In this document: one piece after another, positions 43,461 through 58,801 of the stretch
Numbering within the stretch: position 1 is the first letter of the stretch
Layout: every line of letters begins with the position of its first letter
NCBI GenBank assembly: GCA_001604585.1
Contig: LVBW01000032.1
Span: 47,798-111,797, forward strand
From: Puniceicoccales bacterium Verruco_02
GTDB lineage: Bacteria; Verrucomicrobiota; Verrucomicrobiia; Opitutales; Oceanipulchritudinaceae
Reading direction: 5' to 3'
Length of the DNA stretch: 64,000 bases
Program-made: the position numbers and the translations under genes
The notes under the pieces: generated by a model
What the model was told of the DNA's origin: nothing
The model's database searches: none
What the model saw: only the letters and a program-made list of their open reading frames with translations

Positions 43461-44075
43461 TCAGCCCTTCTTGACGAAGCGGTTTTCAGTACCCCTGCAC
43501 AGTCGCACTATGTTCGAGCGGTGCCGGACTACGAGTGCCACGGCTAGGAGCAGGCATATACCGCGGATTACGCCCGGCTCGTCCAAGAGCCACGCAGCCA
43601 GGGGCAGGCAGAGACCAAGCACTATCGAGGCAAGCGACACGTAGCGAGTCGAGTAAAACACGGCAAGCCATGCGGCAACGCCAATCAGTATGACCACGGG
43701 GCAAAGCGCAAGCAGGCCCCCTATGGTGCTTGCCACACCCTTGCCGCCGCGAAAACCGATGAACACCGAGAAGGAATGTCCGACGAGCGCTGCCACAAGG
43801 CCCGCCACGCCAAGTTCAACTGCCCAGGGTTGCCCGTGGAAGATCATCTGCGGCAGAGCAGCCGCCAGCGCGCCCTTGAGCGCATCGAGGACGAAGCAGA
43901 GGTTGCCAGCGCCTTTGCCCACGACGCGCTTGACGTTCGTGGCACCGGGATTGCCGCTGCCCGCCTTGAGAATGTCCACGCCGTGCCGCTTCGAGATTAT
44001 GACCGCAAAGGACACAGAGCCGAGCAGGTAGCCCGCAACAAGGACAAGCACAAGGTAAAGGATGGGCGGAAACAT
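43461..44075 (-). CDS. plsY: glycerol-3-phosphate acyltransferase PlsY
   Basis: Membrane enzyme using acyl-phosphate to make lysophosphatidic acid, the first step of phospholipid synthesis. 204 aa. Signature loops are 'LKAGSGNPGATNVKRVVG' and 'FRGGKGVASTIGGLLA', with 'ALVGHSFSVF' between. About seven hydrophobic segments. Start ATG 44075. Confidence 0.95.
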   Translation of the reverse strand: MFPPILYLVLVLVAGYLLGSVSFAVIISKRHGVDILKAGSGNPGATNVKRVVGKGAGNLCFVLDALKGALAAALPQMIFHGQPWAVELGVAGLVAALVGHSFSVFIGFRGGKGVASTIGGLLALCPVVILIGVAAWLAVFYSTRYVSLASIVLGLCLPLAAWLLDEPGVIRGICLLLAVALVVRHRSNIVRLCRGTENRFVKKG

Positions 44076-44108
44076 GTTGGCGAATCTGTGAAACTGTCAG
44101 TTCATGCA

Positions 44109-44144
44109 ACGGCCCGCGAGTCGTGATTCAGACTCGCGGGCCGT
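44109..44144 (-). terminator. serA terminator
   Basis: A perfect 14-bp stem: ACGGCCCGCGAGTC (44109-44122) with GACTCGCGGGCCGT (44131-44144), 8-nt loop, 50 bp after the serA stop on the minus strand. Confidence 0.8.
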
Positions 44145-44194
44145 AAACTATCTGTGCGGCAAACGGCTCTGGTCAAGCCTCGCCGCGCAATTCT

Positions 44195-45784
44195 CTACGC
44201 GAGGTCAACGAGCTGCACGCCCTTTATGTCCTTGTGCGCCATAAGCTCGGAAATGGCCTTCTCGCAGGGCCTGCTGTCCAGAGTGCAGATGTTCAGGGCA
44301 AGGCCGCCCACGTTGTTGCGCGATAGCGACATGTTGGCGATGTTCAGGCCGTTCTTAGCGAGGACGGTGCCAATGTGGCCGACTATTCCGGGCACGTCGT
44401 TGTTCTCTACTACGAGCAGGAAGCCCGAGAGGACCGCCTCCACGTCGCGCCCGTTGAGCGAGACCATGCGGGACTTCTGGCTCTTGCCAAAGAGGGTTCC
44501 CGCCACGCAGAACTTCGCACCGCTGGAGCTTTCGGCCTCCACGGCCAGAAGGTCTGTGTAATCGGTGTCCGTGTTGGAGCTGTGGGCCTGCACCTCGATG
44601 CCGAGGCGCTTCATGGCACGCGGGGCGTTGATGTCGTTTATGTCCTGAGCGATCTTGCGCAGGTAGCCGCGCTGAACGGAGCGGACGACAGGCAAATTGT
44701 CGTAAGAGGTCATCTTGCCCCAGCCGCGAATAGTAATCTTGGTCACGTCCTTGGCCGAAACCTGTTGCAGGACGCTGCCCAAGAGTTCGCCAAGGCGCAG
44801 ATAGGGGGCAAGGATCTTGAGAGTGGCCGGGTCAACGGCAGGCGCGTTGATGGCGTTGCGAATCATGCCGCCCTTCAAGACGGACGCGATTGCCTCGGCC
44901 ACTTCGATGCCCACGCCCTCCTGAGCCTCCACCGTGGACGCACCAAGGTGGGGGGTCATGATGACGTTGGGCAGGCCGCGCAGGGGACTGTCGGCCTGAA
45001 GAGGCTCGGCGTCGAACACGTCGAGTCCGGCAGCGGCCACCTTGCGGCTCTTGAGAGCCTCGGCCAGTGCCGCTTCGTCGATAAGGCCGCCACGGGCGCA
45101 GTTCACGATGCGCACCCCGTCCTTCATCCTGGCGATGGCGGCGGAGTTGATCATGTTCTTTGTCTCTGCGGTCTTGGGCATGTGGATGGAGATGTAGTCC
45201 GCCTGCGCGAACAGGGTGTCCAGCTCCACCTTCTCGACGCCCATCTGGTGCGCCTTTTCCTCGGTCAGGTAGGGGTCGTAGGCCAGAACGCGCATGTTGA
45301 AGGCGAGCGCCCTCTTGGCGAGGTTGCCGCCGATGCGGCCAAGGCCTATTACGCCCAGAACCTTGCCGTTAAGCTCTATGCCTTCAAAGCTCTTCTTGTC
45401 CCACTTGCCAGCGCGCATCGAGGCGTCTGCCTGCACGACGGGGCGCGCGGTGCAGAGCATGAGCGTGAAGGCCAGCTCGCAGGCGGCAATGGTGTTGCCT
45501 CCGGGAGTGTTCATGACGATGACGCCGCGCTCTGTGGCTGCGTCCACGTCGATGTTGTCCACGCCGACACCGGCGCGGCCAACTGCCTTGAGCTTCGGGG
45601 CGGCCAGGATCACCTCGCGGGTGATCTTCGTCGCGCTGCGAACGATGATTGCGTCCACATCGGACACGAACTCGATGACCTTGTCAGGGGAGGAAGACTT
45701 GAAAGCCTCCACCACTTCAAAGCCCTGCTCACGGAGCATGGCGACGCCCGATTCTGCAATCTTGTCTGCTACGAGGATTTTCAT
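44195..45784 (-). CDS. serA: D-3-phosphoglycerate dehydrogenase
   Basis: First step of serine synthesis. 529 aa, the long three-domain form. NAD-binding 'GVIGLGRIGGNLAKRA', the substrate Arg/catalytic region 'NCARGGLIDEAAL' and the catalytic His in 'VIMTPHLGASTVEAQ'. An ASB domain follows, then a C-terminal ACT domain ('NNDVPGIVGHIGTVLAKNGL') that would allow serine feedback. ATG 45784 is preferred over TTG 45793. Monocistronic with its own terminator. Confidence 0.96.
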   Translation of the reverse strand: MKILVADKIAESGVAMLREQGFEVVEAFKSSSPDKVIEFVSDVDAIIVRSATKITREVILAAPKLKAVGRAGVGVDNIDVDAATERGVIVMNTPGGNTIAACELAFTLMLCTARPVVQADASMRAGKWDKKSFEGIELNGKVLGVIGLGRIGGNLAKRALAFNMRVLAYDPYLTEEKAHQMGVEKVELDTLFAQADYISIHMPKTAETKNMINSAAIARMKDGVRIVNCARGGLIDEAALAEALKSRKVAAAGLDVFDAEPLQADSPLRGLPNVIMTPHLGASTVEAQEGVGIEVAEAIASVLKGGMIRNAINAPAVDPATLKILAPYLRLGELLGSVLQQVSAKDVTKITIRGWGKMTSYDNLPVVRSVQRGYLRKIAQDINDINAPRAMKRLGIEVQAHSSNTDTDYTDLLAVEAESSSGAKFCVAGTLFGKSQKSRMVSLNGRDVEAVLSGFLLVVENNDVPGIVGHIGTVLAKNGLNIANMSLSRNNVGGLALNICTLDSRPCEKAISELMAHKDIKGVQLVDLA

Positions 45785-45888
45785 GATGGCCAAAAGTTGG
45801 ACAATTAAGCCTCTTGCCGCCTCATTGCAACGAAAAGAAAACCCAATGGCAGAATCCGATCTGATGAAAGCCTGCCGCCGAAAAAGAA

Positions 45889-45920
45889 AAGGGCCGCACT
45901 CGTTGCCGAGTGCGGCCCTT
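45889..45920 (-). terminator. dnaK rho-independent terminator
   Basis: A perfect 14-bp stem: AAGGGCCGCACTCG (45889-45902) and CGAGTGCGGCCCTT (45907-45920), TTGC loop, followed on the minus strand by a T-rich run (complement of 45881-45890). Confidence 0.9.
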
Positions 45921-45934
45921 GAAAACCGGATTGA

Positions 45935-47866
45935 CTACTTGCGCTTGTCGTCCACGTCCTCGACCTCGGCATCAACCACATTGTCGTCTGCCGGGGCGCC
46001 CTGCTGCGGCTGCGGGCCGGACTGTGCTCCGCCGGGCTGCTGCCCCTGTGCGTTGGCCTGCTGATACATGCGCGAAACGGCCTCCTGCATCTCCTTGTTG
46101 TTCTGGATGGACTCCAGAGCAGCGGCGATGCGCGTTGCGTCGTTTGACTCCAGCGCGGCCTTGCCCTCTTTGATAAGGCTTTCGGCGGTGTCCTTTGCGC
46201 TGCCCAGCTTGTCGCCGTTCTCCTTTACTAGCTTTTCAGTCTGGTACACGAGCGTGTCTAGCTGGTTGCGCTTTTCGACGGCCTCGCGGGCCTTGCGGTC
46301 CTCCTCGGCATGGGCTTCGGCCTCCTTGCGCAGGCGCTCCACCTCGGCCTTGTCCAAACCGCTTGCGCCCGTGATGGATATTTTCTGCGCCTTGCCCGTG
46401 CCAAGATCCTTGGCCGAGACGTTGAGGATGCCGTTTACGTCGATGTCGAAAGTGACCTCGATCTGCGGAACTCCGCGGGGCGCGGGCGGGATGCCGTCAA
46501 GGTGGAAGGTGCCCAGCACCTTGTTGTCGCGCGCCATCGGGCGCTCGCCCTGAAGGACGCGGATTTCCACGCTCGGCTGATTGTCCGAGTAGGTCGAGAA
46601 AGTGTTGCTGCGCTTGGTGGGAACTGTGGTGTTGCGCTCGATCATGGGGGTGGCGACGCCGCCAGCCGTCTCGATGGAGAGCGTCAGCGGAGTGACGTCC
46701 AGAAGGAGCACGTCCTTGACCTCGCCCTTGAGCACGCCGCCCTGAATGGCAGCGCCCACGGCAACGACCTCGTCCGGATTCACACCCTTGTGCGGCTCCT
46801 TGCCAGCCAGCTCGCGGGCCACTTCCACCACCCGGGGCATACGGGTCATGCCGCCCACGAGCACAAGCTCGTTGATGTCCTTGGCGGAGAAACCGGCGTC
46901 CTTAAGACAGTTCTGGAACGGGGTCTTGGTGCGCTGAATGAGTTGATCTGTAATCTGCTCAAGCTTGGCGCGGGTCAGGTTCACCATCAGGTGCTTCGGC
47001 CCGGTGGCATCGGCAGTGATGAAGGGAAGGTTGATGTCTGTAGTCTGCGCGCTCGAAAGGGCGATCTTGGCCTTTTCGGCCTCTTCCTTGAGGCGCTGCA
47101 CCGCGGTCTTGTCCTGCTTAAGGTCGATGCCGTTCTCCTTCTTGAACTCGGCCACGAGCCAGTCGATTATGGTGCTGTCCCAATTGTCGCCGCCCAGGTG
47201 GGTGTCGCCGTTTGTCGCCTTCACCTCGAAGACGCCTTCGCCGATTTCGAGGATCGAAATGTCGAAAGTGCCGCCGCCAAGGTCGTAAACGGCGATAGTC
47301 TCGTCGCTCTTCTTGTCGAGGCCATAGGCGAGCGATGCCGCCGTTGGCTCGTTTATGATGCGCAGCACCTCAAGACCGGCTATCGTGCCCGCATCCTTGG
47401 TCGCCTGACGCTGAGCGTCGTTAAAGTAAGCCGGGACGGTGATGACGGCCTTTGTAATCTTTTCGCCAAGGAAGGCCTCGGCGTCGGCCTTTAGCTTGGC
47501 CAGCACCATCGAGGAAATCTGCTCTGGGGCGAACTTCTCCACCTTGCCGCCCACGCTGCACTCTATCCATGCGTCGCCGTTACGGCCCTCGACCACCTTG
47601 TAAGGCAGGTTGCGCGCCTCTTCTAGCACCTCGTTGTACTTGCGGCCAATTAGGCGCTTGGCCGAGAATATCGTGTTCTGCGGGTTTGTTACCGCCTGAC
47701 GCTTGGCAGCCTGCCCCACGAGGCGCTCGCCGTCCTTGGTGAATGCAACGATGGATGGTGTCGTGCGCGCGCCCTCGCTGTTGGGAATGACGACAGGCTC
47801 GCCGCCTTCCATGACAGCCATGCAGGAGTTTGTTGTGCCCAGGTCTATGCCAAGAATCTTGCTCAT
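45935..47866 (-). CDS. dnaK: chaperone protein DnaK (Hsp70)
   Basis: 643 aa from ATG 47866. The nucleotide-binding domain opens with '[20 protein letters not shown]' and includes '[19 protein letters not shown]' and '[13 protein letters not shown]'. The linker is '[15 protein letters not shown]', followed by the substrate-binding beta domain, a helical lid and a Gly/Gln/Pro-rich tail ending '[10 protein letters not shown]'. grpE and dnaJ are not adjacent. I looked for a CIRCE operator upstream and found none. Confidence 0.97.
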
Positions 47867-48207
47867 TATGTATATTGGTTTAACCAACAGATGCAGGGCC
47901 TGTGCCGAATTGCCGCGCAGCGATTCATTCCGCTGTGAAACAACAAGATAGGCAATAATTAACACATGCCGCGCAAGGCTGGAAGCAGGCAATTTCGTGG
48001 CACAATGTCACAGTTGAGACAGAGTGCTGGCGCCCTGCTGGCGCAGTGTGGAGGTGCTTGGCTAGGAACGCGCAATAGCGACTCTTGCGCCAAGTGGCAT
48101 CAAGTCTCGCATACAAGGGGTTGACGTAGGGATGCACCGGGGGCATTCTATCGAGAACAGGGCTCCCAAGCCCCCACCCACCCCATACCCACGCGAGCAT
48201 CAAGGCA
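47867..48207. other. divergent promoter region between dnaK and mreB
   Basis: 341 bp with no gene. It contains the repeated motif CTGGCGC (near 48028 and 48039), but no complete heat-shock operator or recognisable RNA. Confidence 0.45.
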
Positions 48208-49230
48208 ATGTTAGGCAAGGCACTAGGCTTCTTTTCCACAGACATAGGCATCGACCTTGGGACGGCCAACACTCTTGTTTACGTCAAGGACAAGGGCATT
48301 GTGCTCAAAGAACCCACCGTCGTTGCCATAGACGTGGAGACTGGCGAGCCAAAGGCCGTGGGCATCGAGGCCAAGAACATGCTTGGCCGCACCCCGATGG
48401 GCATCAAGGCCGTGCGCCCGATGAAGGACGGCGTCATATCCGACCCCGTGCTCACCGAGGCCATGCTGCGCGTGTTCATCGGCAAGGTGGTCAACTCCGT
48501 TCGCTTTCCCCCGCCCCGCGTAGTCATTGCAGTTCCGAGCGGCATCACCCAGGTGGAGCGCCGCGCAGTGAGCGAAAGCGCCATGCACGCCGGTGCGCGA
48601 GAGGTACACCTATTGCCAGAGACCATGGCCGCGGCGATAGGCGTGGGCCTGCCCGTGGACGAACCTGCCGCAAGCATGATAGTGGACATCGGCGGTGGCA
48701 CGACGGAAGTGGGCATCATATCCCTTTCAGGCACTGTCTATGCAAAGAGTCTGCGCACCGGAGGCGACAAGTTTGACGCTTCCATAATCAACTACATGAA
48801 GCGCGCCTACAACCTGAACATTGGCGAGCGCATGGCCGAAGAAATCAAGATACGCATCGGCAGCGCTGCCCCCCTCGACAAGGAGCTGACAATGGAGGTG
48901 AAGGGCAGCGACTCTGTGGCGGGCCTGCCCAAGACCCTGCACATATCCTCGCACGAAATCCGCGAGGCGCTGATGGAGTCTCTTAGCGCAATTGTGGGCG
49001 CTGTGCGCGCAGCTCTGGAAAACTGCCCCCCGGAACTTTCCGCCGACCTTGTGGACCGCGGCTTTGTCATGGCCGGGGGCGGCTCGATGATACGCAACAT
49101 CGACCGCCTGCTATCCGACGCCACGGGCCTGCCCGTAATCGTGGCCGACGAGCCGCTCAACGCCGTTGCAAACGGCACCGGACGCGTGCTTCAGGACATG
49201 GACTGGTACATGAACACCAATCGCGGCTAG
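48208..49230 (+). CDS. mreB: rod-shape-determining protein MreB
   Basis: Bacterial actin that organises lateral wall synthesis. 340 aa. 'DIGIDLGTANTLVYVKDKGI' is phosphate-1, 'MIVDIGGGTTEVGIISLSG' phosphate-2 and 'GFVMAGGGSMIRNIDRLL' the adenosine motif. Start ATG 48208. mreC and mreD do not follow; a response regulator comes next after 229 bp. Confidence 0.96.
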   Translation: MLGKALGFFSTDIGIDLGTANTLVYVKDKGIVLKEPTVVAIDVETGEPKAVGIEAKNMLGRTPMGIKAVRPMKDGVISDPVLTEAMLRVFIGKVVNSVRFPPPRVVIAVPSGITQVERRAVSESAMHAGAREVHLLPETMAAAIGVGLPVDEPAASMIVDIGGGTTEVGIISLSGTVYAKSLRTGGDKFDASIINYMKRAYNLNIGERMAEEIKIRIGSAAPLDKELTMEVKGSDSVAGLPKTLHISSHEIREALMESLSAIVGAVRAALENCPPELSADLVDRGFVMAGGGSMIRNIDRLLSDATGLPVIVADEPLNAVANGTGRVLQDMDWYMNTNRG

Positions 49231-49459
49231 GCCAACAAGCCCCAATAAAGCGGCTGGACGGCGATACAATAAGAACCTTCGCCACGCACCCACCCGGTCA
49301 CCGCTTTGACGCATTTGAAACGCATTATTTACGTCAAATAATTATCAAAAAGAGAAATGGGTGCTTTCGGGTTGATAGAGTAGAGGAAATCCATACTGTT
49401 TTCAGGTGTGAATGCCCCATAATCAGGCATAAACGACCCCTCATCTCCTAATCCAAGCC

Positions 49460-50119
49460 ATGATTCGCACCGTCATAATTGAAGATCAGACAGCCGTCCG
49501 GGAAATGGTGGCCCAGGTGGTGCGTCTCGATCCAGAGCTTGAGGTGGTGGGCGAAGTGGGAGACGGGCACGAGGCCTGCGAAGCCTGCCTTCGCCTGAAG
49601 CCTGACTTTGTAATACTCGACGTAATGCTGCCCGGCCTCAACGGAACCGAGGTGCTACGCCGCTTTTCCCGCCAGTTGCACGACACGCGCGTTCTGGTGT
49701 TCTCCGGCTACGAAGACCCGATGCTGTTGCGCGAGCTGCTCGAAGCAGGCGCGCATGGCTTTGTGGGCAAGAACGCACCTCTTTCCGAACTCAAGCGCGG
49801 CATCAACGTGGTGTCACGCGGTGGCAGCTATTTCGGCCCGGAAATTGCCCGCATACTGCGCGAGGTGATGACCGGCCCCATGCTGGGCCAGCGCAGCGCC
49901 CTTGGCCTACTGACAAGCCGCGAGCGCGAGATTCTCCAGCTAATAGCCGAGAGCTACAGCACCAAGGAAATAGCCTCGAAGCTAGGCATAAGCGTTAAGA
50001 CTGCGGAAAACCACCGCACAAACCTTATGCGCAAGCTGGACCTGCACGACGTGGCCAGCATCACGCGTTTTGCCATAGAGCAGGGCCTTATACAGGCCCC
50101 GCCTCGCCCTCTGGGTTAA
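49460..50119 (+). CDS. NarL/LuxR-type response regulator
   Basis: 219 aa. The receiver domain has the phospho-Asp in '[17 protein letters not shown]', the Thr/Ser in '[10 protein letters not shown]' and the Lys in 'GFVGKNAPL'. A LuxR-type HTH follows: '[20 protein letters not shown]' and '[16 protein letters not shown]'. There is no adjacent histidine kinase. The next gene, on the other strand, encodes an Hpt phosphotransfer protein, so a phosphorelay may link them. Confidence 0.93.
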
Positions 50120-50156
50120 AGAAAACCCTCTCCGAGGGCAGGATGCATAACACTCC

Positions 50157-50540
50157 TTAGCCTAGAGCGGCGATCTCAACCTTCATCTGGACTATCGCCA
50201 CATGATAGGCCTTTTCGATGAGGGCCGCGCCGCTTTCCAGATCCTCGCGCGACATGTCCGAACGCGCTCCATGCTCGTATGCACGGCAGACCTGCGAAAG
50301 CCGCAGAAGCCCGAGGTTGGCACTGGCCCCTGCAAGGGCATGGGCGATGCGGTTGCACTTGTGCCTGTCAACCTCTGCTGCGGCCTGATACAGCTCGATG
50401 AACTTCGGCTCCGCCTCCTGGGTGTACAGGTCGAGCAGCTCTTCCAGCATTGCCTTGGCCTCGTCCTCGCCGGTAGCCACAAGCATCTCGAACTGCTCAC
50501 GATCAATAATCTCTACGTTGGAAAAGTCAGATATGGGCAT
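50157..50540 (-). CDS. stand-alone Hpt (histidine phosphotransfer) protein
   Basis: 127 aa, all-helical. The phospho-accepting His lies in 'NRIAHALAGASANLGLLRLS', matching the HxLxGxSxxxG pattern. Single Hpt proteins shuttle phosphate between hybrid kinases and response regulators. Converges with the response regulator at 49460-50119 (37-bp gap), a likely partner. Start ATG 50540. Confidence 0.87.
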   Translation of the reverse strand: MPISDFSNVEIIDREQFEMLVATGEDEAKAMLEELLDLYTQEAEPKFIELYQAAAEVDRHKCNRIAHALAGASANLGLLRLSQVCRAYEHGARSDMSREDLESGAALIEKAYHVAIVQMKVEIAALG

Positions 50541-50649
50541 GGCATGAAACTACTTGGGCGCGAGCATACGCTCGACACGGGGAGACTACATATTACGGGG
50601 GCCAATCAGCTTCCATTCTAAGCCTGCAATCTCCTTGGGCAAGTATAAA

Positions 50650-50672
50650 GGCCAGTTCTAACAACTTTGAGT
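50650..50672. mobile_element. solo terminal repeat of the palindromic MITE
   Basis: GGCCAGTTCTAACAACTTTG (50650-50669) matches the MITE end GGCCACCTCTAACAACTTTG at all but two positions, then continues two to three bases. The rest of the element is absent or decayed. It lies between the Hpt gene and the stop of the ubiquitin gene. Confidence 0.6.
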
Positions 50673-50694
50673 TGATATACCAGGATGCAATACC

Positions 50695-51444
50695 TTACCT
50701 AGGCCTCTTACGCCGCCGCAGCCACAAGCTTACGCCAATAGCCCCCAGCGAGGCCAAGCCCGCCACATGTGCAGGTTCTGGAACTGCTGTATAGATGAGG
50801 TCTATTGTCGAAACCCCGACTCCAAGCGAAAAGCTGCCCCCGTAGCTGTTGGTAAAGTCAGTCATGTCCAGCACGAGGCTCCCCTCGGTCCAGCCGAGCA
50901 GCGAACCACTCGCAGTAACAAGATTCCACTGGTAATCCTGCGTGGGGTCGAAATTTGCCGCATCGGCCACAAGACCGGTGCTCACGCTCGTGATGCGAAT
51001 GGCAAAGGGGTTGGCACTGGTGGCTTCAATACTGATGTCCTCATCGGCAAGAAGATTTGTCCAGCCAATTCCCGGCTCGCCTGCGGCATCGAGCATGTAA
51101 AAGTCCAACCCCTCGCCGCCAATCCATGTCGTTGGCGAGGTATATGTCCCGCCTGAGGCCCTAAGAACAAGGTGCAGGGTAGATTCCTTCTGAATGTTGT
51201 AATCGGAGAGCGTTCGGCCATCTTCGAGCTGCTTGCCCGCAAAGATCAGGCGCTGGAAATACGGCAGAAGCTCTTCCTTGTCCTGAATCATGGCCTTGAC
51301 GTTCTCGATGGAGTCCGAAGTCTCGACTTCCAAAGCGATGGTCTTACCCGTGAGGGTCTTCACAAATATCTGCATCGCGCTGACGGAATGAGCTGACACA
51401 AAGGCCAAGAGAGCGGCCATGACGAGGTAGCGAATGGGGTGCAT
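50695..51444 (-). CDS. secreted ubiquitin domain-PEP-CTERM protein
   Basis: 249 aa from ATG 51444 (a TTG at 51468 is less likely). Residues 1-23 are a signal peptide ending 'FVSAHSVSA'. Residues 24-99 (nucleotides 51375-51148) are a full 76-residue ubiquitin, 65 of 76 identical to human by my alignment. Changes are at 14, 19, 22, 29, 35, 36, 37, 39, 40, 73 and 74. Leu8, Ile44, Val70, Arg72 and Gly75-Gly76 are kept; Lys6, 11, 27, 33, 48 and 63 are kept, Lys29 is Met. A beta-rich domain follows (100-220), then '[17 protein letters not shown]', a membrane helix and a terminal RRRKRPR, a PEP-CTERM signal recognised by exosortases. Monocistronic, no ubiquitin-conjugation gene nearby. Presumably horizontally acquired. 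Confidence 0.93.
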
Positions 51445-51647
51445 ATGTGTGTGTGTAATATAATCCAAACGACAAAACGCACCAACAGGATAAGCCCTAA
51501 TTCAAGCGCAAGAAGCGCAAGTCGCGGCAAATGCGCTTGCAAAGCGGCCACTAGTCCCTAGTTTCTTCCCTTTCCGCTCTTCGCGGGGAAGCAAACAACA
51601 ACCACAACAAGCATTAGAAAGTAAAGCCGCCGACAAAGGGCGACTTG

Positions 51648-51663
51648 CCCCGGAAAGCCGGGG
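51648..51663 (+). promoter_or_regulatory. stem-loop in the rpsB leader
   Basis: CCCCGG (51648-51653) and CCGGGG (51658-51663) form a tight hairpin with an AAAG tetraloop, 14 bp before the rpsB start. It may be part of an S2 autoregulatory leader as known in other bacteria; inference from position. Confidence 0.4.
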
Positions 51664-51677
51664 TGCAACTGACATAC

Positions 51678-52505
51678 ATGAACATCACGATCAAAGACCT
51701 CCTCGACGCTGGCGTACACTTCGGCCACCAGATGCGCCGCTACAACCCGCGCAGCAAGAAGTTCGTTTTCGACAACCGCCACGGCATCTCGATCATCGAC
51801 CTTGAAAAGACCTACGCCCAGCTCGAAAAGGCAGCCGCGTTCGTCGAGGACACCGTCGCCGCAGGCGGCAAGATTCTCTTCGTCGGCACCAAGCGTCAGG
51901 CTCAGGAAGTCCTGCGCGAAGCCGCCACACAGTGCCAGATGCCCTACTGCGTCACCCGCTGGCTGGGCGGCACGCTGACCAACTTTGCCACAGTCAAAGG
52001 CTCCATCGAAAAGTACAAGAAGTTCCTCTCGATGGAGGCCGACGGCTCGATGGACAAGCTCCCCAACAAGGAAGCTGCCGCCAACCGCCGCGACATGCTG
52101 CGCATGAACCGCAATTTCGAGGGTATGCTCGAAATGAAGGACCGCCCCGCCGCAATGTTCGTTGTGGACACCCGCTGCGAGGAAATCGCCGTTGCCGAAG
52201 CAATCCGCCTTGGCATCCCGGTCGTGGGCCTTGTCGATACCAATTCGGACCCGACAATCCTCACCCACCCCGTCCCCGGCAATGACGACTCGATAAAGAG
52301 TATCCGCATAATCGTGGAAACACTCATCGACGCCATTCAGGCCGGTGCCGCCCGCCGCGAAGTGAGCGTCCCCGCTCAAGGTCGCAACATCGTGGTGAAC
52401 CGCTACGACAGCGTGAAGGAAGAGCAGCTCCCCGTCACCGCCCGCGCAATCAGCGTGCCCGGCAAGAGCGACGTTCCCGAGACCTTCTCCAGCGACGCCG
52501 AATAG
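51678..52505 (+). CDS. rpsB: 30S ribosomal protein S2
   Basis: 275 aa from ATG 51678. 'MNITIKDLLDAGVHFGHQMR' and 'YNPRSKKFVFDNRHGISIID' open the protein, with 'RWLGGTLTNFATVKGSIEKY' and 'VVGLVDTNSDPTILTHPVPG' further in. A longer C-terminal tail than E. coli S2 is present. The frame is open to 51645, but ATG 51678 is the conserved start. Followed by tsf, the standard gene pair. Confidence 0.97.
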   Translation: MNITIKDLLDAGVHFGHQMRRYNPRSKKFVFDNRHGISIIDLEKTYAQLEKAAAFVEDTVAAGGKILFVGTKRQAQEVLREAATQCQMPYCVTRWLGGTLTNFATVKGSIEKYKKFLSMEADGSMDKLPNKEAAANRRDMLRMNRNFEGMLEMKDRPAAMFVVDTRCEEIAVAEAIRLGIPVVGLVDTNSDPTILTHPVPGNDDSIKSIRIIVETLIDAIQAGAARREVSVPAQGRNIVVNRYDSVKEEQLPVTARAISVPGKSDVPETFSSDAE

Positions 52506-52539
52506 GGCCGGCCCCGACAGCTACACAGCCTCATTTACA

Positions 52540-52571
52540 ACGGGGGCCGCCCGATACGCGGCGGCCCCCGT
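52540..52571 (+). terminator. terminator/attenuator between rpsB and tsf
   Basis: A perfect 12-bp stem, ACGGGGGCCGCC (52540-52551) with GGCGGCCCCCGT (52560-52571), 8-nt loop, followed by TACATTTTC. It likely reduces read-through into tsf, setting the S2 to EF-Ts ratio. Confidence 0.75.
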
Positions 52572-52615
52572 TACATTTTCGGAAAACCCTTAATACGCGA
52601 AAGATTCATAGACCA

Positions 52616-53206
52616 ATGAGCGAAATTACCGCAAAGATGGTGGGCGACCTCAGGGCCAAGACCGGAGCCGGTCTGGTTGACTGCAAGAACGCCTTGAAAG
52701 ACACCAACGGCAACATCGAGGAAGCCATCACCATTCTCCGCAAGAAGGGTGTGGCCTCTGCCGAAAAGAAGGCTGGCCGCAACGCCGGTCAGGGCATCAT
52801 CGAGAGCTACATCCACATGGGTGGCAAGGTCGGCGTCATGCTCGAAATCAACTGCGAGACGGACTTCGTGGCCAAGACCGACGAATTCCACCAGCTCGCA
52901 AGGGACATCGCCATGCACATTGCCGCCAGCAGCCCCGTCTCCGTGGGCCGCGAGGAGGTCCCCACCGAACTCATCGCCAAGGAGCGCGAAATAGCCGCCG
53001 AACAGGTCAAGGGCAAGCCCGCCGCGATCGTCGAAAAGATCGTGGACGGCAAGATGGAGAAAATCTACTCCACACTCTGCCTGCTCGAACAGCCCTTCGT
53101 AAAGAATCAGGACCAGACCGTCAAAGACCTCATCACCGAGAAAATCGCCAAGATGGGCGAAAACATCGTCGTGAGGCGCTTCACCCGCTACCAGCTCGGC
53201 GAATAG
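52616..53206 (+). CDS. tsf: elongation factor Ts (short form)
   Basis: Nucleotide exchange factor for EF-Tu. 196 aa, the short form with one core subdomain, as in Thermus and some other phyla, instead of the ~280 aa of E. coli. 'KMVGDLRAKTGAGLVDCKNA' is the UBA-like N-terminus, and 'LEINCETDFVAKTDEF' contains the TDFV exchange motif. Start ATG 52616. Confidence 0.95.
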   Translation: MSEITAKMVGDLRAKTGAGLVDCKNALKDTNGNIEEAITILRKKGVASAEKKAGRNAGQGIIESYIHMGGKVGVMLEINCETDFVAKTDEFHQLARDIAMHIAASSPVSVGREEVPTELIAKEREIAAEQVKGKPAAIVEKIVDGKMEKIYSTLCLLEQPFVKNQDQTVKDLITEKIAKMGENIVVRRFTRYQLGE

Positions 53207-53228
53207 CGCGTTTTGTCAATATAGTTTT

Positions 53229-53265
53229 AAAGCCCCGCCTGCGGAACCATTCCCGGCGGGGCTTT
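53229..53265 (+). terminator. tsf rho-independent terminator
   Basis: AAAGCCCCGCC (53229-53239) pairs with GGCGGGGCTTT (53255-53265), with a further T after it. Confidence 0.85.
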
Positions 53266-53346
53266 TCCGTAAGAAGAGTCCTGGCTGGACACGAACGCCC
53301 CAATTGGTTTGTCAGCGCGAGGAACACCCTGTATTGCCCACATAAC

Positions 53347-54009
53347 ATGACTTTCAGAACCATCGCCCTGCTTCTAGCCAGCTTCGCAGCCCTGCCCCTG
53401 CACGGCGCGCTATCCTGGGAGAGCACTGTTTACAAGGAACAGGCCAGCGCCACATCAGTCGCCACCGTGGCCAAATTCCGCTTTACAAACAAAGGCAAGG
53501 ACAGCGTGCAGATCAGCTCGCTTAAGTCCAGTTGCGGCTGCACGACGGCCGAGCTCGAGAAGCGCCTGTATGCCCCCGGCGAAGGCGGCACAATAACAGC
53601 CGAATTCACATACGGGGACCGCGTCGGCAAACAGCACAAGGTGATAACAATCACCAGTCAGGACGGCGAAGGAACGCACAACACGATGCTGGAAATCTTT
53701 GTGGACATACCAGAATCGATAAACGTATCGCCTCGCATCCAGTTCTGGAAACAGGGCGAGGCACTCGAAGGACGCCCCATAGTCATCAAAATGGCCGAAG
53801 GCTTCCCCGGAACCCCGATAAGCGCCCGCATGTTCGACAAGGACAGCAAGTTCCGCCTCGGGGAAATCACGATGACAGCCCCCGGAGAGTATGTGCTGGA
53901 GGCCGTCCCGCTGACAACGGACAAGACAATGACAGAGGCCGGAGAGCTGCTCTTCGAGGTGGAAGGCAAGGAACACCGAAAGCTGATTTTCTACCTAAGC
54001 GTCCGCTGA
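53347..54009 (+). CDS. DUF1573-domain secreted protein
   Basis: 220 aa with a signal peptide ending near 'ALPLHGALSW'. The DUF1573 signature is 'LKSSCGCTTAELEKRLYAPG', in an Ig-like fold with a CxC pair ('SCGCT'), followed by a second beta-rich half. Such proteins are common in Bacteroidetes and Verrucomicrobia envelopes; function unknown. It converges with the GH2 gene (25-bp gap). Confidence 0.85.
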   Translation: MTFRTIALLLASFAALPLHGALSWESTVYKEQASATSVATVAKFRFTNKGKDSVQISSLKSSCGCTTAELEKRLYAPGEGGTITAEFTYGDRVGKQHKVITITSQDGEGTHNTMLEIFVDIPESINVSPRIQFWKQGEALEGRPIVIKMAEGFPGTPISARMFDKDSKFRLGEITMTAPGEYVLEAVPLTTDKTMTEAGELLFEVEGKEHRKLIFYLSVR

Positions 54010-54034
54010 AGCGCTGGCGCAACTGCCCATCTAT

Positions 54035-56272
54035 TTACAAGCGTAGGCTGGCTTGCGCCAATCCACCGGAGTGCGCGGTAAACGACCCGCGGCCACTGCC
54101 CCTGACTACAAACGAGGCTACGCCTGCCTCCGTCTCCACACGGGCTGCACCCACACAGCGCCAGCCGGGGGGGCAAGAGTCCAGCTCCACCAAGGCCCCG
54201 CTGCAAACGCAGATAGATCCAGAGACATCCCGTAGCTCGGCGTGCAAAAAGAGCAAATCGTCGGCGGCATCCGGCGAAATGCCCAGAGTATCCGCCCAGA
54301 GGTGCAGGGCAACAGGCTCGCCGTGGCTACGGACAATATGCTCTGCAACAGACCTGCCACCGACATATGCCAGCGCCCTCAACTGTCCGGGGCGGAAAGT
54401 GCCAGCGTCGAACTCAAAAGGCGGATATGGCAGATGCGGATAGTCGGCACACATTGGCCGCTCCCTTCCAAGCGATACCCCGTCCAGGAACAGTTCCACC
54501 TCTTCGGCATTGCTGAATACCCGCACTATTGGCGAAGAGCCGGGCATCCAGTCCGAGGCGATGAACAGCTCCACCCCGCCTCGCCAGCCCGGCCCGCCCT
54601 CGCGAATGTCACGCTGGCTGCGGTAGAAATGATAGGCATACTTGGGCAGACGAAAATGGTCCATCACCCCACAGGCGGCCTGACGCGGATTGTAACCGCG
54701 CGGATAGTCGAACATTGCCCATTGCCCGTCGCAAATTGCAGGGCTGGAAAGAGTGTCGTCCAAGGCGATTGCAAAATTCTCCGCTTGCCGGAGCAGCTTT
54801 GCCTCCCCATCAATGCGACGCGCACGGCTGTTATGCGCCTCCGGCAGTAGCCCGGCACCCGTTGCCTGATCGAAGCCCTCGTTCTCGGCGTAAAACTCCC
54901 AGTCGCCGTATTCGGATACCACCAGCGCCCGCTCGCCGTTAAGCCAACTGTGTATGCGCCCATGCTGGCGGGCGTGTATGAACACATCGTAGGCATCCAT
55001 CCAGCCACAGGTGAACATCTGCCCGCCGGGGAATTCCTCGTGCCCGATGGCCCGCATCCGCTCCATAAAGGCCTCGCTCATCTGCGTTTCGTTGAGCGAC
55101 AACTCCCAGAGTATCACACAGGGATGGTTGCGGTCCCGCCGCACAAGCTCCCGCGCAGCCTCTGCACAAGCGTCCTCGAAGGCCGCTCCGCCGCAGTACT
55201 GCCAGCCGGGGATGCAGTTCATTACGAGGATGCCCAGCTCGTCGCAGGCGTCCAGAAAGTCCGGCGACTGCGGGTAATGCGACAGACGCACGTAGTCGAA
55301 GCCCGCCTCCTTTATGCGCACAGCGTCGCGCCTCTGCGCGGCCGCTGGCAGTGCGTAGCCAGCGTATGGGTGATCCTGATGCCGGTTCGTGCCTCGAGGA
55401 CGGACGCGACGCCCGTTGATTTCCAGCCCTCCGCTGCGCGACATCTTCAGCGTGCGTATGCCGAAGCGTTCGCAGCGCCTATCCAGCACTTCGCCCTCAG
55501 GGCCGCGCAAGGTCAGTTCAAGGGTGTGCAATGCAGGGCTATCGGGACTCCACAGGGCGGGATTGGCGATGCAGGGCGAAAAGCTGACATGCTCCCCAGT
55601 CCCGGCCTCCAGAACGCCACTCAGCGCAATGCCGCGCGCAAGCTCCACATCGCCACGCAAAACGCGCATCTCCAGGCTCCCGGCAAGGGCCTTGGCCGAG
55701 CCGTTGCAGACATGCACGCGCACAGCCAGCTCCGCCATCTGCCCATCGGCGCGAATGGTCCGAACAAACACCCCTCCCCCCGCTACCAGACCCGCCGTGG
55801 CGGCGTCGCTGATGTGCAGGGCAGCAAGCCTGCGTAGCTCCACAGGGCGGTACAGCCCGCCGAACCAGCAGAAATCAAGTTCCGCGAGGGGCTTTCCAGG
55901 AGGCACATCTGGGGCGTCGCGATTGTCTAGAACGACGATCAGCTCGTGTTCCGCCCCGTCGGCAAGAGCTTGCGTTACATCCACTTCAAAAGGCAGGTAG
56001 CCGCCGCTGTGCCGGGCCAGTTCCACCCCGTCCAGCAGCACCCGCGCCGTGTGCATGGCGCCGTGGAAATGCAGGGCAAAGCTCTCGCCAGCTTGCGGGT
56101 TCTCCGCGCGTATGCAGCGCCTGTACTCGCAAAGGCCCTGCCAGTGAGGCCCGCCCTCGGGGTCGGTGACAAATGGCGTGTGCGGAATGCGTACGTCTTC
56201 CCAGTGCGCTGCGCCACAGAGGCGGAAGCTCCACTCGGAAAGAGTCTGCGTCTTGGATGAAAAATCTGTCAT
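54035..56272 (-). CDS. glycoside hydrolase family 2, probable beta-galactosidase
   Basis: 745 aa from ATG 56272, without an obvious signal peptide. Jelly-roll sugar-binding domain, Ig-like domain, then TIM barrel: 'GTNRHQDHPYAGYALP' is the GH2 barrel entry, the acid/base Glu is in 'ILWELSLNETQM', and the nucleophile Glu is in 'ALVVSEYGDWEFY'. C-terminal beta domains follow. Its place at the end of a GH53/TonB/transporter/LacI series makes cytoplasmic or periplasmic cleavage of galacto-oligosaccharides likely, though GH2 also covers other activities. Confidence 0.85.
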   Translation of the reverse strand: MTDFSSKTQTLSEWSFRLCGAAHWEDVRIPHTPFVTDPEGGPHWQGLCEYRRCIRAENPQAGESFALHFHGAMHTARVLLDGVELARHSGGYLPFEVDVTQALADGAEHELIVVLDNRDAPDVPPGKPLAELDFCWFGGLYRPVELRRLAALHISDAATAGLVAGGGVFVRTIRADGQMAELAVRVHVCNGSAKALAGSLEMRVLRGDVELARGIALSGVLEAGTGEHVSFSPCIANPALWSPDSPALHTLELTLRGPEGEVLDRRCERFGIRTLKMSRSGGLEINGRRVRPRGTNRHQDHPYAGYALPAAAQRRDAVRIKEAGFDYVRLSHYPQSPDFLDACDELGILVMNCIPGWQYCGGAAFEDACAEAARELVRRDRNHPCVILWELSLNETQMSEAFMERMRAIGHEEFPGGQMFTCGWMDAYDVFIHARQHGRIHSWLNGERALVVSEYGDWEFYAENEGFDQATGAGLLPEAHNSRARRIDGEAKLLRQAENFAIALDDTLSSPAICDGQWAMFDYPRGYNPRQAACGVMDHFRLPKYAYHFYRSQRDIREGGPGWRGGVELFIASDWMPGSSPIVRVFSNAEEVELFLDGVSLGRERPMCADYPHLPYPPFEFDAGTFRPGQLRALAYVGGRSVAEHIVRSHGEPVALHLWADTLGISPDAADDLLFLHAELRDVSGSICVCSGALVELDSCPPGWRCVGAARVETEAGVASFVVRGSGRGSFTAHSGGLAQASLRL

Positions 56273-56343
56273 GGAAAAATGGTGCAGCCGCACGGAAGGC
56301 CCGCGCGCTCTTGAAACAGGCAGGTTTCGCTCATCCGCTCGCT

Positions 56344-57336
56344 CTAGCGTACGGAATTACGGGAAATGAGGCGCAGTGGCAGGACAAGACTGCGCTCCCT
56401 TGGCGGCTCCTCGCCCGTACAACGGTCCAGCATGTCCACGGCGGCCTCGGCCATGTCCCTTAGCGGCTCCTCTATGGTCGTCAGCGGGGGGCACTGGATG
56501 GCGGAAATGCCCTCGTTCTCGCCACCGATAAGCGACACATCCTCGGGCACGCGAAGCCCCATTACGTATGTCAATAGGTGCAGGCACTCCATGGCCTGAA
56601 AACTCGTCCCCGGAACGAATACCGCATCCGCACCGTTGCGCACAAGACGGGTTACGACAGCCTGATGCGTTCCCGGCCCGGCCTGCACCAGCAGACGCTC
56701 GTCCAGCGCGTACCCGGCGGCTGAAAGCCCGTCGCGATACCCGCGCAACCTCTCCGCAAATGCCTGCCCTTCGCCGCCGAAAAACGCCGGATGCTTCATG
56801 CCTCGCGTCGCAAAGTGCTCCGCCGCAATGAGGCCCGAACGGTAATGGTCCGAACATACCCGGTACTGCTCCGGGCCAGCGTCGAAACGATCCATGTAAA
56901 CAACCGGGATACGGCTCTCCATGCGCGAAAGAAGCTCCAGAAGGCGGGAGTCGAAGGTGACGGCCACTATGCCGTCAAGAAACAGGCTAGGTAGCTGCTC
57001 GAAGGGGTCCGAAGGCAGGACAACGCCAATGTTTCGCCGCGAAAATGCAAAGGCCAAATGCGCCGTCAGGGTGGCTGCGTAACCCTCGATACGGTCCGTG
57101 TAAGTAGGCTCGGAGAGTATGGCCACCTGCCTTGTGCGCGGGGCCACCTGCGGCTTCAGGTCCAGCTCTCGTGCGGCCATGAGGATGCGCTCGCGCGTCT
57201 CCGGCCGGACCTTGTCCCGGTTGTTGAGGACGCGGCTGACAGTTCCCGGCGAAAAGCCCGTATGGCGGGCAAGATCGTAGATGGTGGACTTTCTCGCCCC
57301 GTCCCTGTTCTGTGTGCTGTTTTCCGTAAGATTCAT
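56344..57336 (-). CDS. LacI-family transcriptional regulator
   Basis: 330 aa. The HTH is 'TIYDLARHTGFSPGTVSRVL', the hinge helix region follows, and the C-terminal periplasmic-binding-like domain ends with 'PPLTTIEEPLRDMAEAAVDM'. ATG 57336 lies 4 bp after the transporter stop and 71 bp before GH2. Most likely it represses the galactan operon and responds to galactose or a galacto-oligosaccharide. Confidence 0.93.
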   Translation of the reverse strand: MNLTENSTQNRDGARKSTIYDLARHTGFSPGTVSRVLNNRDKVRPETRERILMAARELDLKPQVAPRTRQVAILSEPTYTDRIEGYAATLTAHLAFAFSRRNIGVVLPSDPFEQLPSLFLDGIVAVTFDSRLLELLSRMESRIPVVYMDRFDAGPEQYRVCSDHYRSGLIAAEHFATRGMKHPAFFGGEGQAFAERLRGYRDGLSAAGYALDERLLVQAGPGTHQAVVTRLVRNGADAVFVPGTSFQAMECLHLLTYVMGLRVPEDVSLIGGENEGISAIQCPPLTTIEEPLRDMAEAAVDMLDRCTGEEPPRERSLVLPLRLISRNSVR

Positions 57337-57340
57337 AGCC

Positions 57341-58801
57341 TTATACAGTTCCGCGGCGGGCCTCAAGAGCGTCGCGTATTTCGTAGGCGCGTTTCTGCGT
57401 CAGGGGGTAGAATTGCAAAAGGATGATGGCCGCCGCGGCCCACACCGCCGTGGATACGGCAAGGAAAAGGCGCAGCGTAAGTATGCTCTCCGGGGACTGT
57501 GCCCCGCCAAGGGCGGAGTTGAAGCCCGATATGTCCAGCGCGATGCCCATGCCGAGCATCGAGAGCGAAAAGCCCATCTTCTGTATCCACGAAAAAATGG
57601 ACCCGAGCATACCCTCGCGCCGCTTTCCGCAGCGCAGCTCGTCGTCGTCGCAGACATCGGCCAGCATCGAGGGCATCAGCACGTTCAGCGCCGTCCACAC
57701 AGGGCCGCAAAGAAGAGGGTCCAACAGTATCTTCCACGGGTTGCCGGGCGCGAAGAAGAACCACTTGCCGAATGCGCCTGCAAATACCATGCCGAAGATT
57801 AGAGACAGGGTTTTGCGCTTGCCGATGCGGTTCGCCAGCCAGTTGACCGGGTATATCGTCGTAACACCCACTATCGCGTAACCGACCGAGAGGTTGCCCT
57901 TCCATAGGGAGCCAGTCGCCACGTCGCCGTCGAACATGTAATATACGATAAGGTAATAGTCCGTGCTACTGGCCAGCATACCCGCCAGCACCTGACAGAC
58001 GGTAAGCCCAATGAGCACGACAAAGGCCTTGTTGCGCATCGAGGACGCGAGGCTGGGCCAGAAGCGTATCTTTTCCTGCTTTGCGCTGATGCGCGTAAGG
58101 TAGCGTTCCTTGACAAAGATCGCGGGCAAGAGGCCCACCATGCCGAAGAATATGAGGCCCGTTGCCCAGCCCACGACCCGCACTCCCGTGATGACACCGC
58201 CGAAGATGGCCAGCCCGGCCAGCGGGAACAGGTAGGAATAGCCAATCTCGCCCACCTTGTTGAACAGCCCGGCAAAGGCCGTCACGCGGGTGCGCTCCTT
58301 GTAGTCGGGCGTCATCTCGTAGGTCAGCGCGTATAAAGGCACGGAGAACACCGTGTAGCAGGTGTAGAAAAGGAGCAGCGCGCCCAGAAGGAATGCGGCC
58401 TTGCCCCAGTCGCCCCACTCTGCCGGGGCCATCCATATCAGCCCGAAGGACAGGGCCTGCAAAATGGCCCCGATGAATATCATGGGCCTGCGCCTGCCCC
58501 AGCGGCTGCGCAGGTTGTCCGAAAAGTAGCCCGCCGCCGGGTCCGTGACAGCGTCCCAGAGCCTGGGCAGCGCCAGCACAGTGGCCAGGAGCGACGGGTT
58601 CATGTGCATCGTCATCTGGTAGAAGGGCATGGCGATGCTGTTTACCGCGGCGTTGCCAAGGAACACGGGTAGATAGCCGGAACCCAGGGCGAGCTTTTCG
58701 CCAAGGCCCACGCGGTCCTCCCTGCGCGTATCCCCGGCGGCGGGCGCCGGGCCACCCTCGTGATGACCCGACGCCCCGATGTTTGCTGTGTCAGAAGACA
58801 T
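57341..58801 (-). CDS. MFS sugar:cation symporter, GPH (MelB-like) family
   Basis: 486 aa with about 12 hydrophobic segments. 'ALPRLWDAVTDPAAGYFSDN' contains the Asp pair used for cation coupling in MelB relatives, and 'SRWGRRRPMIFIGAILQALS' is the following loop. Expected to carry galactose or galacto-oligosaccharides over the inner membrane. ATG 58801 follows the TonB receptor stop by 11 bp. Confidence 0.9.
   Translation of the reverse strand: MSSDTANIGASGHHEGGPAPAAGDTRREDRVGLGEKLALGSGYLPVFLGNAAVNSIAMPFYQMTMHMNPSLLATVLALPRLWDAVTDPAAGYFSDNLRSRWGRRRPMIFIGAILQALSFGLIWMAPAEWGDWGKAAFLLGALLLFYTCYTVFSVPLYALTYEMTPDYKERTRVTAFAGLFNKVGEIGYSYLFPLAGLAIFGGVITGVRVVGWATGLIFFGMVGLLPAIFVKERYLTRISAKQEKIRFWPSLASSMRNKAFVVLIGLTVCQVLAGMLASSTDYYLIVYYMFDGDVATGSLWKGNLSVGYAIVGVTTIYPVNWLANRIGKRKTLSLIFGMVFAGAFGKWFFFAPGNPWKILLDPLLCGPVWTALNVLMPSMLADVCDDDELRCGKRREGMLGSIFSWIQKMGFSLSMLGMGIALDISGFNSALGGAQSPESILTLRLFLAVSTAVWAAAAIILLQFYPLTQKRAYEIRDALEARRGTV

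What the first reader, a model, noticed from the sequence alone, without database searches (positions are those of the whole stretch)
50695..51444. Bacterial gene for an exported, near-canonical ubiquitin fused to a PEP-CTERM surface-sorting module
Seen: a 76-residue ubiquitin, 65/76 identical to the human sequence in my manual alignment, sits between an N-terminal signal peptide and a C-terminal PEP-CTERM signal. Known: true ubiquitin is a eukaryotic protein; Bacteroides fragilis has a secreted ubiquitin homologue (BfUbb), a precedent for horizontal transfer. Inference: this organism displays or releases ubiquitin outside the cell, where it could act on host or protist ubiquitin enzymes, act as molecular mimicry, or be a neutral fold used for adhesion. 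The fusion to an exosortase signal is, to my knowledge, an unusual architecture.
Basis: partly seen in the sequence, partly recalled or inferred. Interest (0 to 1): 0.97.

Follow-up and report, generated by a model that had tools for sequence, protein, structure and literature searches.

The report
Bacterial ubiquitin worn on the surface
This bacterium has a gene in which a nearly eukaryotic ubiquitin sits directly behind a predicted export signal and ahead of a predicted surface-sorting tail, and related genes with many different tails occur in several bacterial phyla, so bacteria likely use ubiquitin outside the cell as a displayed head that is not conjugated.

Summary
Window 50695-51444 (-) encodes 249 aa: predicted signal peptide, ubiquitin (65/76 identical to human), about 120 linker residues, and a PEP-CTERM match over cut-off; the genome encodes an exosortase. 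It is no chimera: bacterial genes flank it on a 120-kb contig, and two other genomes of the order encode full-length homologues (37%, 33%). Nor is it a one-off: a scan of named prokaryote genomes found 425 ubiquitin-encoding stretches; of the 80 kept loci, 62 have a predicted signal peptide directly before ubiquitin, including 15 of 17 not labelled MAG, from four phyla. Tails vary: autotransporter barrels (21 of 85 proteins), SLH, IPTL-CTERM, PEP-CTERM, dockerin, T9SS. Residues 1-72 evolve slowly (pN/pS 0.084, 14 chosen pairs) while residues 73-76, needed for conjugation, are mostly lost (GG in 8 of 83). Likely role: an anchored, non-conjugating ubiquitin head that would bind partners outside the cell. 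Whether those are eukaryotic is untested; the two closest homologues have lost most lysines and the I44 patch. Known precedent: BfUbb of Bacteroides fragilis; my searches listed no paper on anchored forms.

The parts
50695..51444 (-). whole gene, 249 aa: predicted signal peptide, ubiquitin, linker, PEP-CTERM
   Evidence: open frame; full-length homologues L014 and L158
51376..51444 (-). predicted signal peptide, residues 1-23, ending SVSA just before ubiquitin Met1
   Evidence: own hydrophobicity and cleavage-site score; not run through SignalP
51148..51375 (-). ubiquitin body, residues 24-99, 65/76 identical to human
   Evidence: PF00240 86.2 bits; tblastn; fold model
51256..51273 (-). changed loop, ubiquitin positions 35-40 (ELLPYF here, GIPPDQ in human); L014 has GLLPMF
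50785..51147 (-). linker of about 120 residues, low-confidence strands, no family match
   Evidence: aligns with L014 and L158
50698..50784 (-). PEP-CTERM sorting signal, residues 221-249 (VPEP, hydrophobic stretch, RRRKRPR)
   Evidence: TIGR02595 21.0 bits, cut-off 16

Best explanation
The gene encodes a ubiquitin body placed right behind a predicted signal peptide and joined through its C-terminus to a PEP-CTERM tail, so the protein is likely exported, likely handled by the genome's exosortase and held at the cell surface or in the matrix, where the ubiquitin would serve as a non-conjugating binding head. Shown: the architecture, full-length homologues in the order, the exosortase gene, many bacterial relatives with the same head and different tails, and slow evolution of residues 1-72 beside loss of residues 73-76. 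Inferred: export, cleavage before Met1, sorting, display at the outer tip, and binding of a partner outside the cell. Across the family the likeliest partner is a ubiquitin-binding protein of a eukaryotic grazer or host, because the lysines and the F4 patch are about as constrained as the core. For the window's own subfamily this is weaker, because its two homologues have lost most lysines and the I44 patch.
For: Architecture and family scores. Exosortase 139 bits and 22 of 27 listed PEP-CTERM matches over cut-off. Full-length homologues. Of 80 named-genome loci, 62 pass the export score; residues -1 and -3 fit a signal-peptidase site in 74 of 83 proteins. Known anchors are C-terminal and vary by lineage. 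GG kept in 8 of 83. Ubiquitin more conserved than tail in 27 of 31 pairs. pN/pS over 14 chosen pairs: all 0.084, core 0.064, F4 patch 0.056, lysines 0.039 (site classes recalled). In Ruminococcus albus 7 two neighbours share the tail domain but carry no ubiquitin.
Against: No protein-level evidence. Signal peptides rest on a crude score. Tail conserved as much or more in 4 of 31 pairs (1 equal, 3 more). The I44 patch (0.134) and D58 face (0.139) are less constrained than the core. None of the 14 pairs includes the window's subfamily. In that subfamily L014 keeps only K27 and K29 of seven lysines and L158 only K27 and K63; both lost I44 (alignment). The window keeps six of seven lysines and the I44 patch but changes loop 35-40. 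The window gene still has G75 and G76. Linker and PEP-CTERM ends resemble ordinary sorted proteins, so the ubiquitin could be a passive cap. Named loci were picked by similarity, which inflates their conservation.
Confidence: 0.5

Rival explanations
1. Passive head: the ubiquitin fold would be a stable, fast-folding, protease-resistant cap on a surface protein, with no specific ligand.
For: The window's two homologues keep mainly fold positions (SD[ST]IENVK, DGR[ST]L[SA]DYNIQ) and lost most lysines and the I44 patch. Tails are ordinary surface modules.
Against: Lysines (0.039) and the F4 patch (0.056) are as constrained as the core (0.064) in 14 pairs outside the subfamily.
Confidence: 0.25
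2. A weapon against other bacteria like BfUbb: the processed or surface-held ubiquitin would inhibit sensitive neighbours.
For: Synthetic mature BfUbb, an exported ubiquitin, inhibits other B. fragilis strains (PMC5705921, parts 1-3 of 6 read). Patchy distribution. Stand-alone exported ubiquitins exist, e.g. L021, L080, and four in a row in L084.
Against: The window protein has a PEP-CTERM tail and would be held at the producer. Bovine ubiquitin is inactive on B. fragilis (PMC5705921), and BfUbb is only 63% identical to human ubiquitin (PMC3352274), unlike the near-human heads here.
Confidence: 0.2
3. The ubiquitin is conjugated inside the bacterium by an E1/E2 system of its own.
For: The window gene keeps G75 and G76, and K48 and K63.
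Against: Predicted export. None of six neighbours scanned is an E1, E2 or JAB protein. GG is lost in 75 of 83 relatives. E2 model: 0 of 19 genomes, but no control rang, so inconclusive.
Confidence: 0.02
4. Assembly chimera or eukaryotic contamination.
For: Absent from both other genomes of the genus, where the region upstream of rpsB differs. Lower GC in the ubiquitin part (0.53) than in nine neighbours (0.58-0.63), and GC3 of the whole gene 0.66 against 0.71-0.83.
Against: 119,756-base contig with bacterial genes on both sides. GC3 of the ubiquitin part 0.71, at the low edge of the neighbours. Full-length homologues on a 1.28-Mb contig of G181 and an 11-kb contig of G1481. The protein is counted on 3 contigs.
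Confidence: 0.02

Closest known systems
BfUbb, secreted ubiquitin of Bacteroides fragilis (PMC3352274 passages; PMC5705921 parts 1-3 of 6)
   Same: Bacterial ubiquitin with a signal peptide that ends exactly before Met1; patchy in relatives; likely acquired by transfer.
   Different: BfUbb is a free 76-aa protein, 63% identical to human ubiquitin, without GG. The window protein is 86% identical over 76, keeps GG, and has a linker and PEP-CTERM tail.
PEP-CTERM/exosortase surface proteins (TIGR02595)
   Same: C-terminal PEP, hydrophobic stretch and basic end; exosortase in the genome.
   Different: No PEP-CTERM protein with a ubiquitin head appeared in the papers I listed.
Secreted ubiquitin extension protein of the nematode Globodera rostochiensis (as told in PMC5705921)
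   Same: Signal peptide, ubiquitin, C-terminal extension.
   Different: Animal protein with a 12-residue extension that is cleaved in the plant; no anchor.
Bacterial ubiquitin-like conjugation operons (PMC11354881, passages)
   Same: Ubiquitin-fold protein in a bacterium.
   Different: Those sit with E1, E2 or JAB genes and act inside the cell; no such neighbour here.

Membership tests
Ubiquitin family (PF00240) | match over the curated cut-off | tested here: met
   86.2 bits, cut-off 25.4; the genome search rang in 0 of 14 control genomes
Ubiquitin family (PF00240) | ubiquitin fold | tested here: met
   predicted model, pLDDT 91-97 over residues 21-90; Foldseek hits to ubiquitin
Ubiquitin family (PF00240) | conjugation through a free C-terminal GG | not testable with these tools
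   GG is present but followed by 150 residues; L73A and R74S
PEP-CTERM protein | C-terminal signal over the cut-off | tested here: met
   21.0 bits, cut-off 16
PEP-CTERM protein | exosortase in the same genome | tested here: met
   PF09721 139.1 bits, cut-off 25.7
PEP-CTERM protein | processing and surface or matrix location | not testable with these tools
   needs cell fractions
BfUbb-type secreted ubiquitin | signal peptide ending just before Met1 | tested here: met
   own score only
BfUbb-type secreted ubiquitin | free mature protein of 76 aa without GG | tested here: not met
   150-residue tail, GG present
BfUbb-type secreted ubiquitin | antibacterial activity | not testable with these tools
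   needs an assay
Bacterial Ubl conjugation operon | E1, E2 or JAB genes beside it | tested here: not met
   six neighbours: Hpt, response regulator, S2, EF-Ts, MreB, DUF1573
Bacterial Ubl conjugation operon | an E2 elsewhere in the genome | tested here: inconclusive
   PF00179 in 0 of 19 genomes, but no control genome rang

The most novel reading that the evidence does not exclude
Bacteria of many phyla wear a genetically pre-ubiquitylated surface: ubiquitin is joined through its C-terminus to an anchored protein, the geometry of a mono-ubiquitylated protein, with Met1 free, acceptor lysines kept under selection and the donor GG lost. The head acts as a permanent ubiquitin mark or chain acceptor that eukaryotic grazers and hosts read or extend, and each lineage supplies its own anchor (PEP-CTERM, autotransporter, SLH, dockerin, T9SS).
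Probability: 0.16. Interest if true: 0.93.

Novelty: new variant of a known kind. Interest (0 to 1): 0.74.

Why it matters
The BfUbb paper of 2017 calls B. fragilis 'one of a few bacteria' with a eukaryotic-like ubiquitin (PMC5705921). Here one scan finds 425 ubiquitin-encoding stretches in prokaryote genomes (some surely contamination), and most of the 80 that could be read look exported, many with lineage-specific C-terminal anchors. If borne out at the protein level, this makes a question directly testable: what recognises ubiquitin outside bacterial cells, and why is its body kept while its conjugation tail is lost. It would also mean that anti-ubiquitin signals in microbial samples can be bacterial.

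Tried and rejected
The homology search with the whole protein was swamped by eukaryotic polyubiquitin (7947 hits, best 120 listed). A search with the window's tail found only itself among 690 candidates. The tail of L014 found 5 proteins among 1210 candidates: a 98% copy with ubiquitin and four others, three of them named autotransporter-associated beta strand protein. A clean empty site could not be shown: in both genus siblings rpsB and tsf are conserved but the DNA upstream differs. A tree of 83 bacterial and 45 eukaryotic units needs 18 label changes but does not rule out one origin; few columns, bootstrap not settled. Haplotypes at eight variable sites pointed to no single donor. Phage records: no match. 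Plasmid records: 3, one covering over 80% of the query. Viral contigs: 15 loci, 9 passing the export score. Promoter and terminator scans gave near-chance numbers; no tRNA at 44000-58000. No shared neighbour stood out by eye in 12 loci listed without family search. Dropped before counts: L005 (no signal peptide, LRLRGG, near a contig end, suspected eukaryotic), duplicate loci L015, L017, L067 and L078, viral loci, and L011 and L013 (gapped) from the 83. Alignment A4 used L158 coordinates that were off at both ends; one search used the right ones.

Literature searches. No listed title or abstract start describes anchored bacterial ubiquitins. PMC10947273 (passages) mentions ubiquitin-like proteins with signal peptides in a sponge symbiont. 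PMC3482391 (passages) and PMC11354881 (passages) do not describe them in what I saw. A later report of a PPIase target of BfUbb is recalled, not found in the library.

Full report
What is there. Window 50695-51444 on the - strand is one open frame of 249 aa from an ATG. Residues 1-23 look like a signal peptide (own score). Residues 24-99 are ubiquitin, 65/76 identical to the human sequence and 86.2 bits to PF00240. Residues 221-246 match PEP_CTERM at 21.0 bits, cut-off 16. Between them lie about 120 residues with no family match, modelled as low-confidence strands. The ubiquitin body is modelled with block pLDDT of 91-97 over residues 21-90 and the 50 best PDB hits shown are ubiquitins.

It belongs to this genome. 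The contig is 119,756 bases long in a 2.70-Mb, 96.6% complete assembly. Neighbours are MreB, a response regulator, an Hpt protein, ribosomal protein S2, EF-Ts and a DUF1573 protein. The genome encodes one exosortase, and 22 of 27 listed PEP-CTERM matches lie over the cut-off, this gene included; at that lax E-value the model also rings in 12 of 14 control genomes, over the cut-off in 2. The last 30 residues resemble another PEP-CTERM end of the genome (57%, L115). Composition: GC3 is 0.71 in the ubiquitin part and 0.66 in the whole gene against 0.71-0.83 in nine neighbours; GC is 0.53 in the ubiquitin part against 0.58-0.63. So it is somewhat AT-richer than its surroundings.

It is part of a small subfamily. 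Ubiquitin matches occur in 14 of 387 genomes sampled from the phylum, in 11 of 372 from the order, 9 of them over the cut-off, and in 1 of 17 from the family, the window's own; both other genomes of the genus lack it. No control genome of 14 rang. Two genomes of the order, G181 (L014) and G1481 (L158), encode homologues of the entire protein, 37% and 33% identical. Kept in all three are SD[ST]IENVK in the helix and DGR[ST]L[SA]DYNIQ. L014 shares the changed loop (GLLPMF against ELLPYF). Both homologues have lost I44 and most lysines: L014 keeps K27 and K29, L158 keeps K27 and K63 (read from the alignment). The order is probably Opitutales: L156, from G1360 of the same order, matches L063 from a named Opitutae MAG over the stretch printed; this is my inference.

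It is also part of a large family. One scan of named prokaryote genomes gave 506 pattern matches, of which 425 encode a ubiquitin relative; the best 80 were kept, so the rest is unread. Of the 80 loci, 62 have a predicted signal peptide running into ubiquitin. The other 18 include likely eukaryotic contaminants (for example L018, four head-to-tail ubiquitins), loci whose hydrophobic stretch lies further from ubiquitin (L051, L060, L072, L075, L097), and three with tandem genes and no signal peptide (L046, L077, L083). Seventeen of the 80 titles do not say MAG: two Dyella, Denitrificimonas, Conexibacter, Paracidovorax, Sphingomonas, two Saccharibacillus, Pseudohaliea, Ruminococcus, Cohnella, Rhodobacter, Pedobacter, Paradonghicola, Pseudovibrio, Loktanella and a Clostridiales bacterium; 15 of 17 pass the export score. 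Phylum samples suggest enrichment in the window's phylum: 14 of 387, against 2 of 398 in the phylum of Dyella (one the chosen centre, the other weak) and 5 of 378 in that of R. albus (one the centre, one below the cut-off). A Bacteroidota sample did not complete.

One head, many tails. Eighty-five non-redundant proteins were scanned (A2): the 80 frames that pass the score plus L051, L060, L072, L075 and L097. By Pfam 21 carry an autotransporter barrel, 4 SLH, 4 IPTL-CTERM, 2 a T9SS tail and 2 dockerin (first 25 of 59 families shown); by NCBIfam 2 carry PEP-CTERM and 1 VPDSG-CTERM (first 25 of 50 shown). Others carry Ig, SdrD or fibronectin domains. These known anchors are C-terminal, which would put ubiquitin at the outer tip. 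On plasmid pRUMAL01 of Ruminococcus albus 7 a gene annotated 'ubiquitin family protein' lies among small proteins with signal-like starts; two neighbours share its tail domain (38% and 27%) but have no ubiquitin. There ubiquitin looks like a head added to one subunit of a set.

What selection keeps. In 83 gapless proteins residues 1-72 are on average 90% human-like and residues 73-76 only 32%; GG is kept in 8 of 83 and exact LRLRGG in 6. The first figure is inflated by how the loci were found. In pairs of relatives ubiquitin is more conserved than the tail in 27 of 31, equal in 1 and less in 3; four further pairs have no tail. The pairs overlap and are not independent. Synonymous sites are near saturation in several (L049/L066: 97% identity, pS 0.98). 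Pooled over 14 chosen pairs, pN/pS is 0.084 for 1-72, 0.064 for the core, 0.056 for the F4 patch, 0.134 for the I44 patch, 0.139 for the D58 face and 0.039 for the lysines (site classes recalled; no pair from the window's subfamily). So the folded body and its lysines are under purifying selection in those lineages while the conjugation tail is not. In 19 Verrucomicrobiota genes found by family model the picture is softer: core 0.88 human-like, F4 patch 0.89, D58 face 0.78, lysines 0.73, I44 patch 0.68, residues 73-76 0.18.

How it most likely works. Export by the signal peptide (inferred), cleavage before Met1 (predicted), exosortase handling of the PEP-CTERM end (inferred), and display of a ubiquitin that is not conjugated but can bind (inferred). 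The kept sites argue for a partner; a eukaryotic partner is my leading guess for the family and weaker for this subfamily. The rivals are a passive stable cap and a BfUbb-like weapon. BfUbb shows that both outward uses are possible: synthetic BfUbb inhibits other B. fragilis strains (PMC5705921, parts 1-3 of 6 read), and recombinant BfUbb was reported to bind human E1 covalently and inhibit ubiquitination in vitro (PMC3352274, passages).

Origin. A eukaryotic or viral donor is likely because ubiquitin of this identity is otherwise eukaryotic, but the tree cannot count transfers. One starred clade mixes Halieaceae, Roseobacteraceae and Verrucomicrobiota (L057, L058, L063, L092), which suggests spread between bacteria.

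Verdict. A real bacterial gene for a probably exported ubiquitin fusion; a new variant of the BfUbb kind and the entry point to an under-described family. Function is inferred.

Noticed in passing
L084:4186-5585 (Pedobacter cryoconitis S3M1): Four exported stand-alone ubiquitin genes in a row, each of 96-97 aa and ending near residue 72 of ubiquitin.
   Followed up: no
L166:3372-5761 (Ruminococcus albus 7 plasmid pRUMAL01): A ubiquitin-headed protein lies between two proteins that share its tail domain but have no ubiquitin, on a plasmid typed as mobilizable.
   Followed up: partly
L046, L077, L083: Tandem ubiquitin-headed genes with a shared tail and no signal peptide by my score, in MAGs titled Bifidobacterium breve (two) and Acidimicrobiales.
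   Followed up: no
L138-L140, L147, L148 (IMG/VR contigs): Contigs filed as viral hold exported ubiquitins; L138-L140 end in an IPTL-like signal and L147 in a PEP-CTERM-like one (by eye).
   Followed up: no
L160 (G1399:C11:32734-32799): A signal-like start and the first 23 ubiquitin residues only, in a frame of 53 aa: possibly a decayed copy.
   Followed up: no
L005 (G345:C7, near the contig end): Ubiquitin with LRLRGG and no signal peptide on a 14-kb contig: suspected eukaryotic contamination of that assembly.
   Followed up: no
L020, L026, L036, L043: A similar stretch (GI.FTS) lies well before the hydrophobic part of the signal peptide in autotransporter-like ubiquitins: perhaps an extended signal region.
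   Followed up: no
L029: A contig titled Methanothrix (archaeal MAG) encodes a signal-like start, ubiquitin and a long tail in a frame of about 1500 aa; binning not checked.
   Followed up: no
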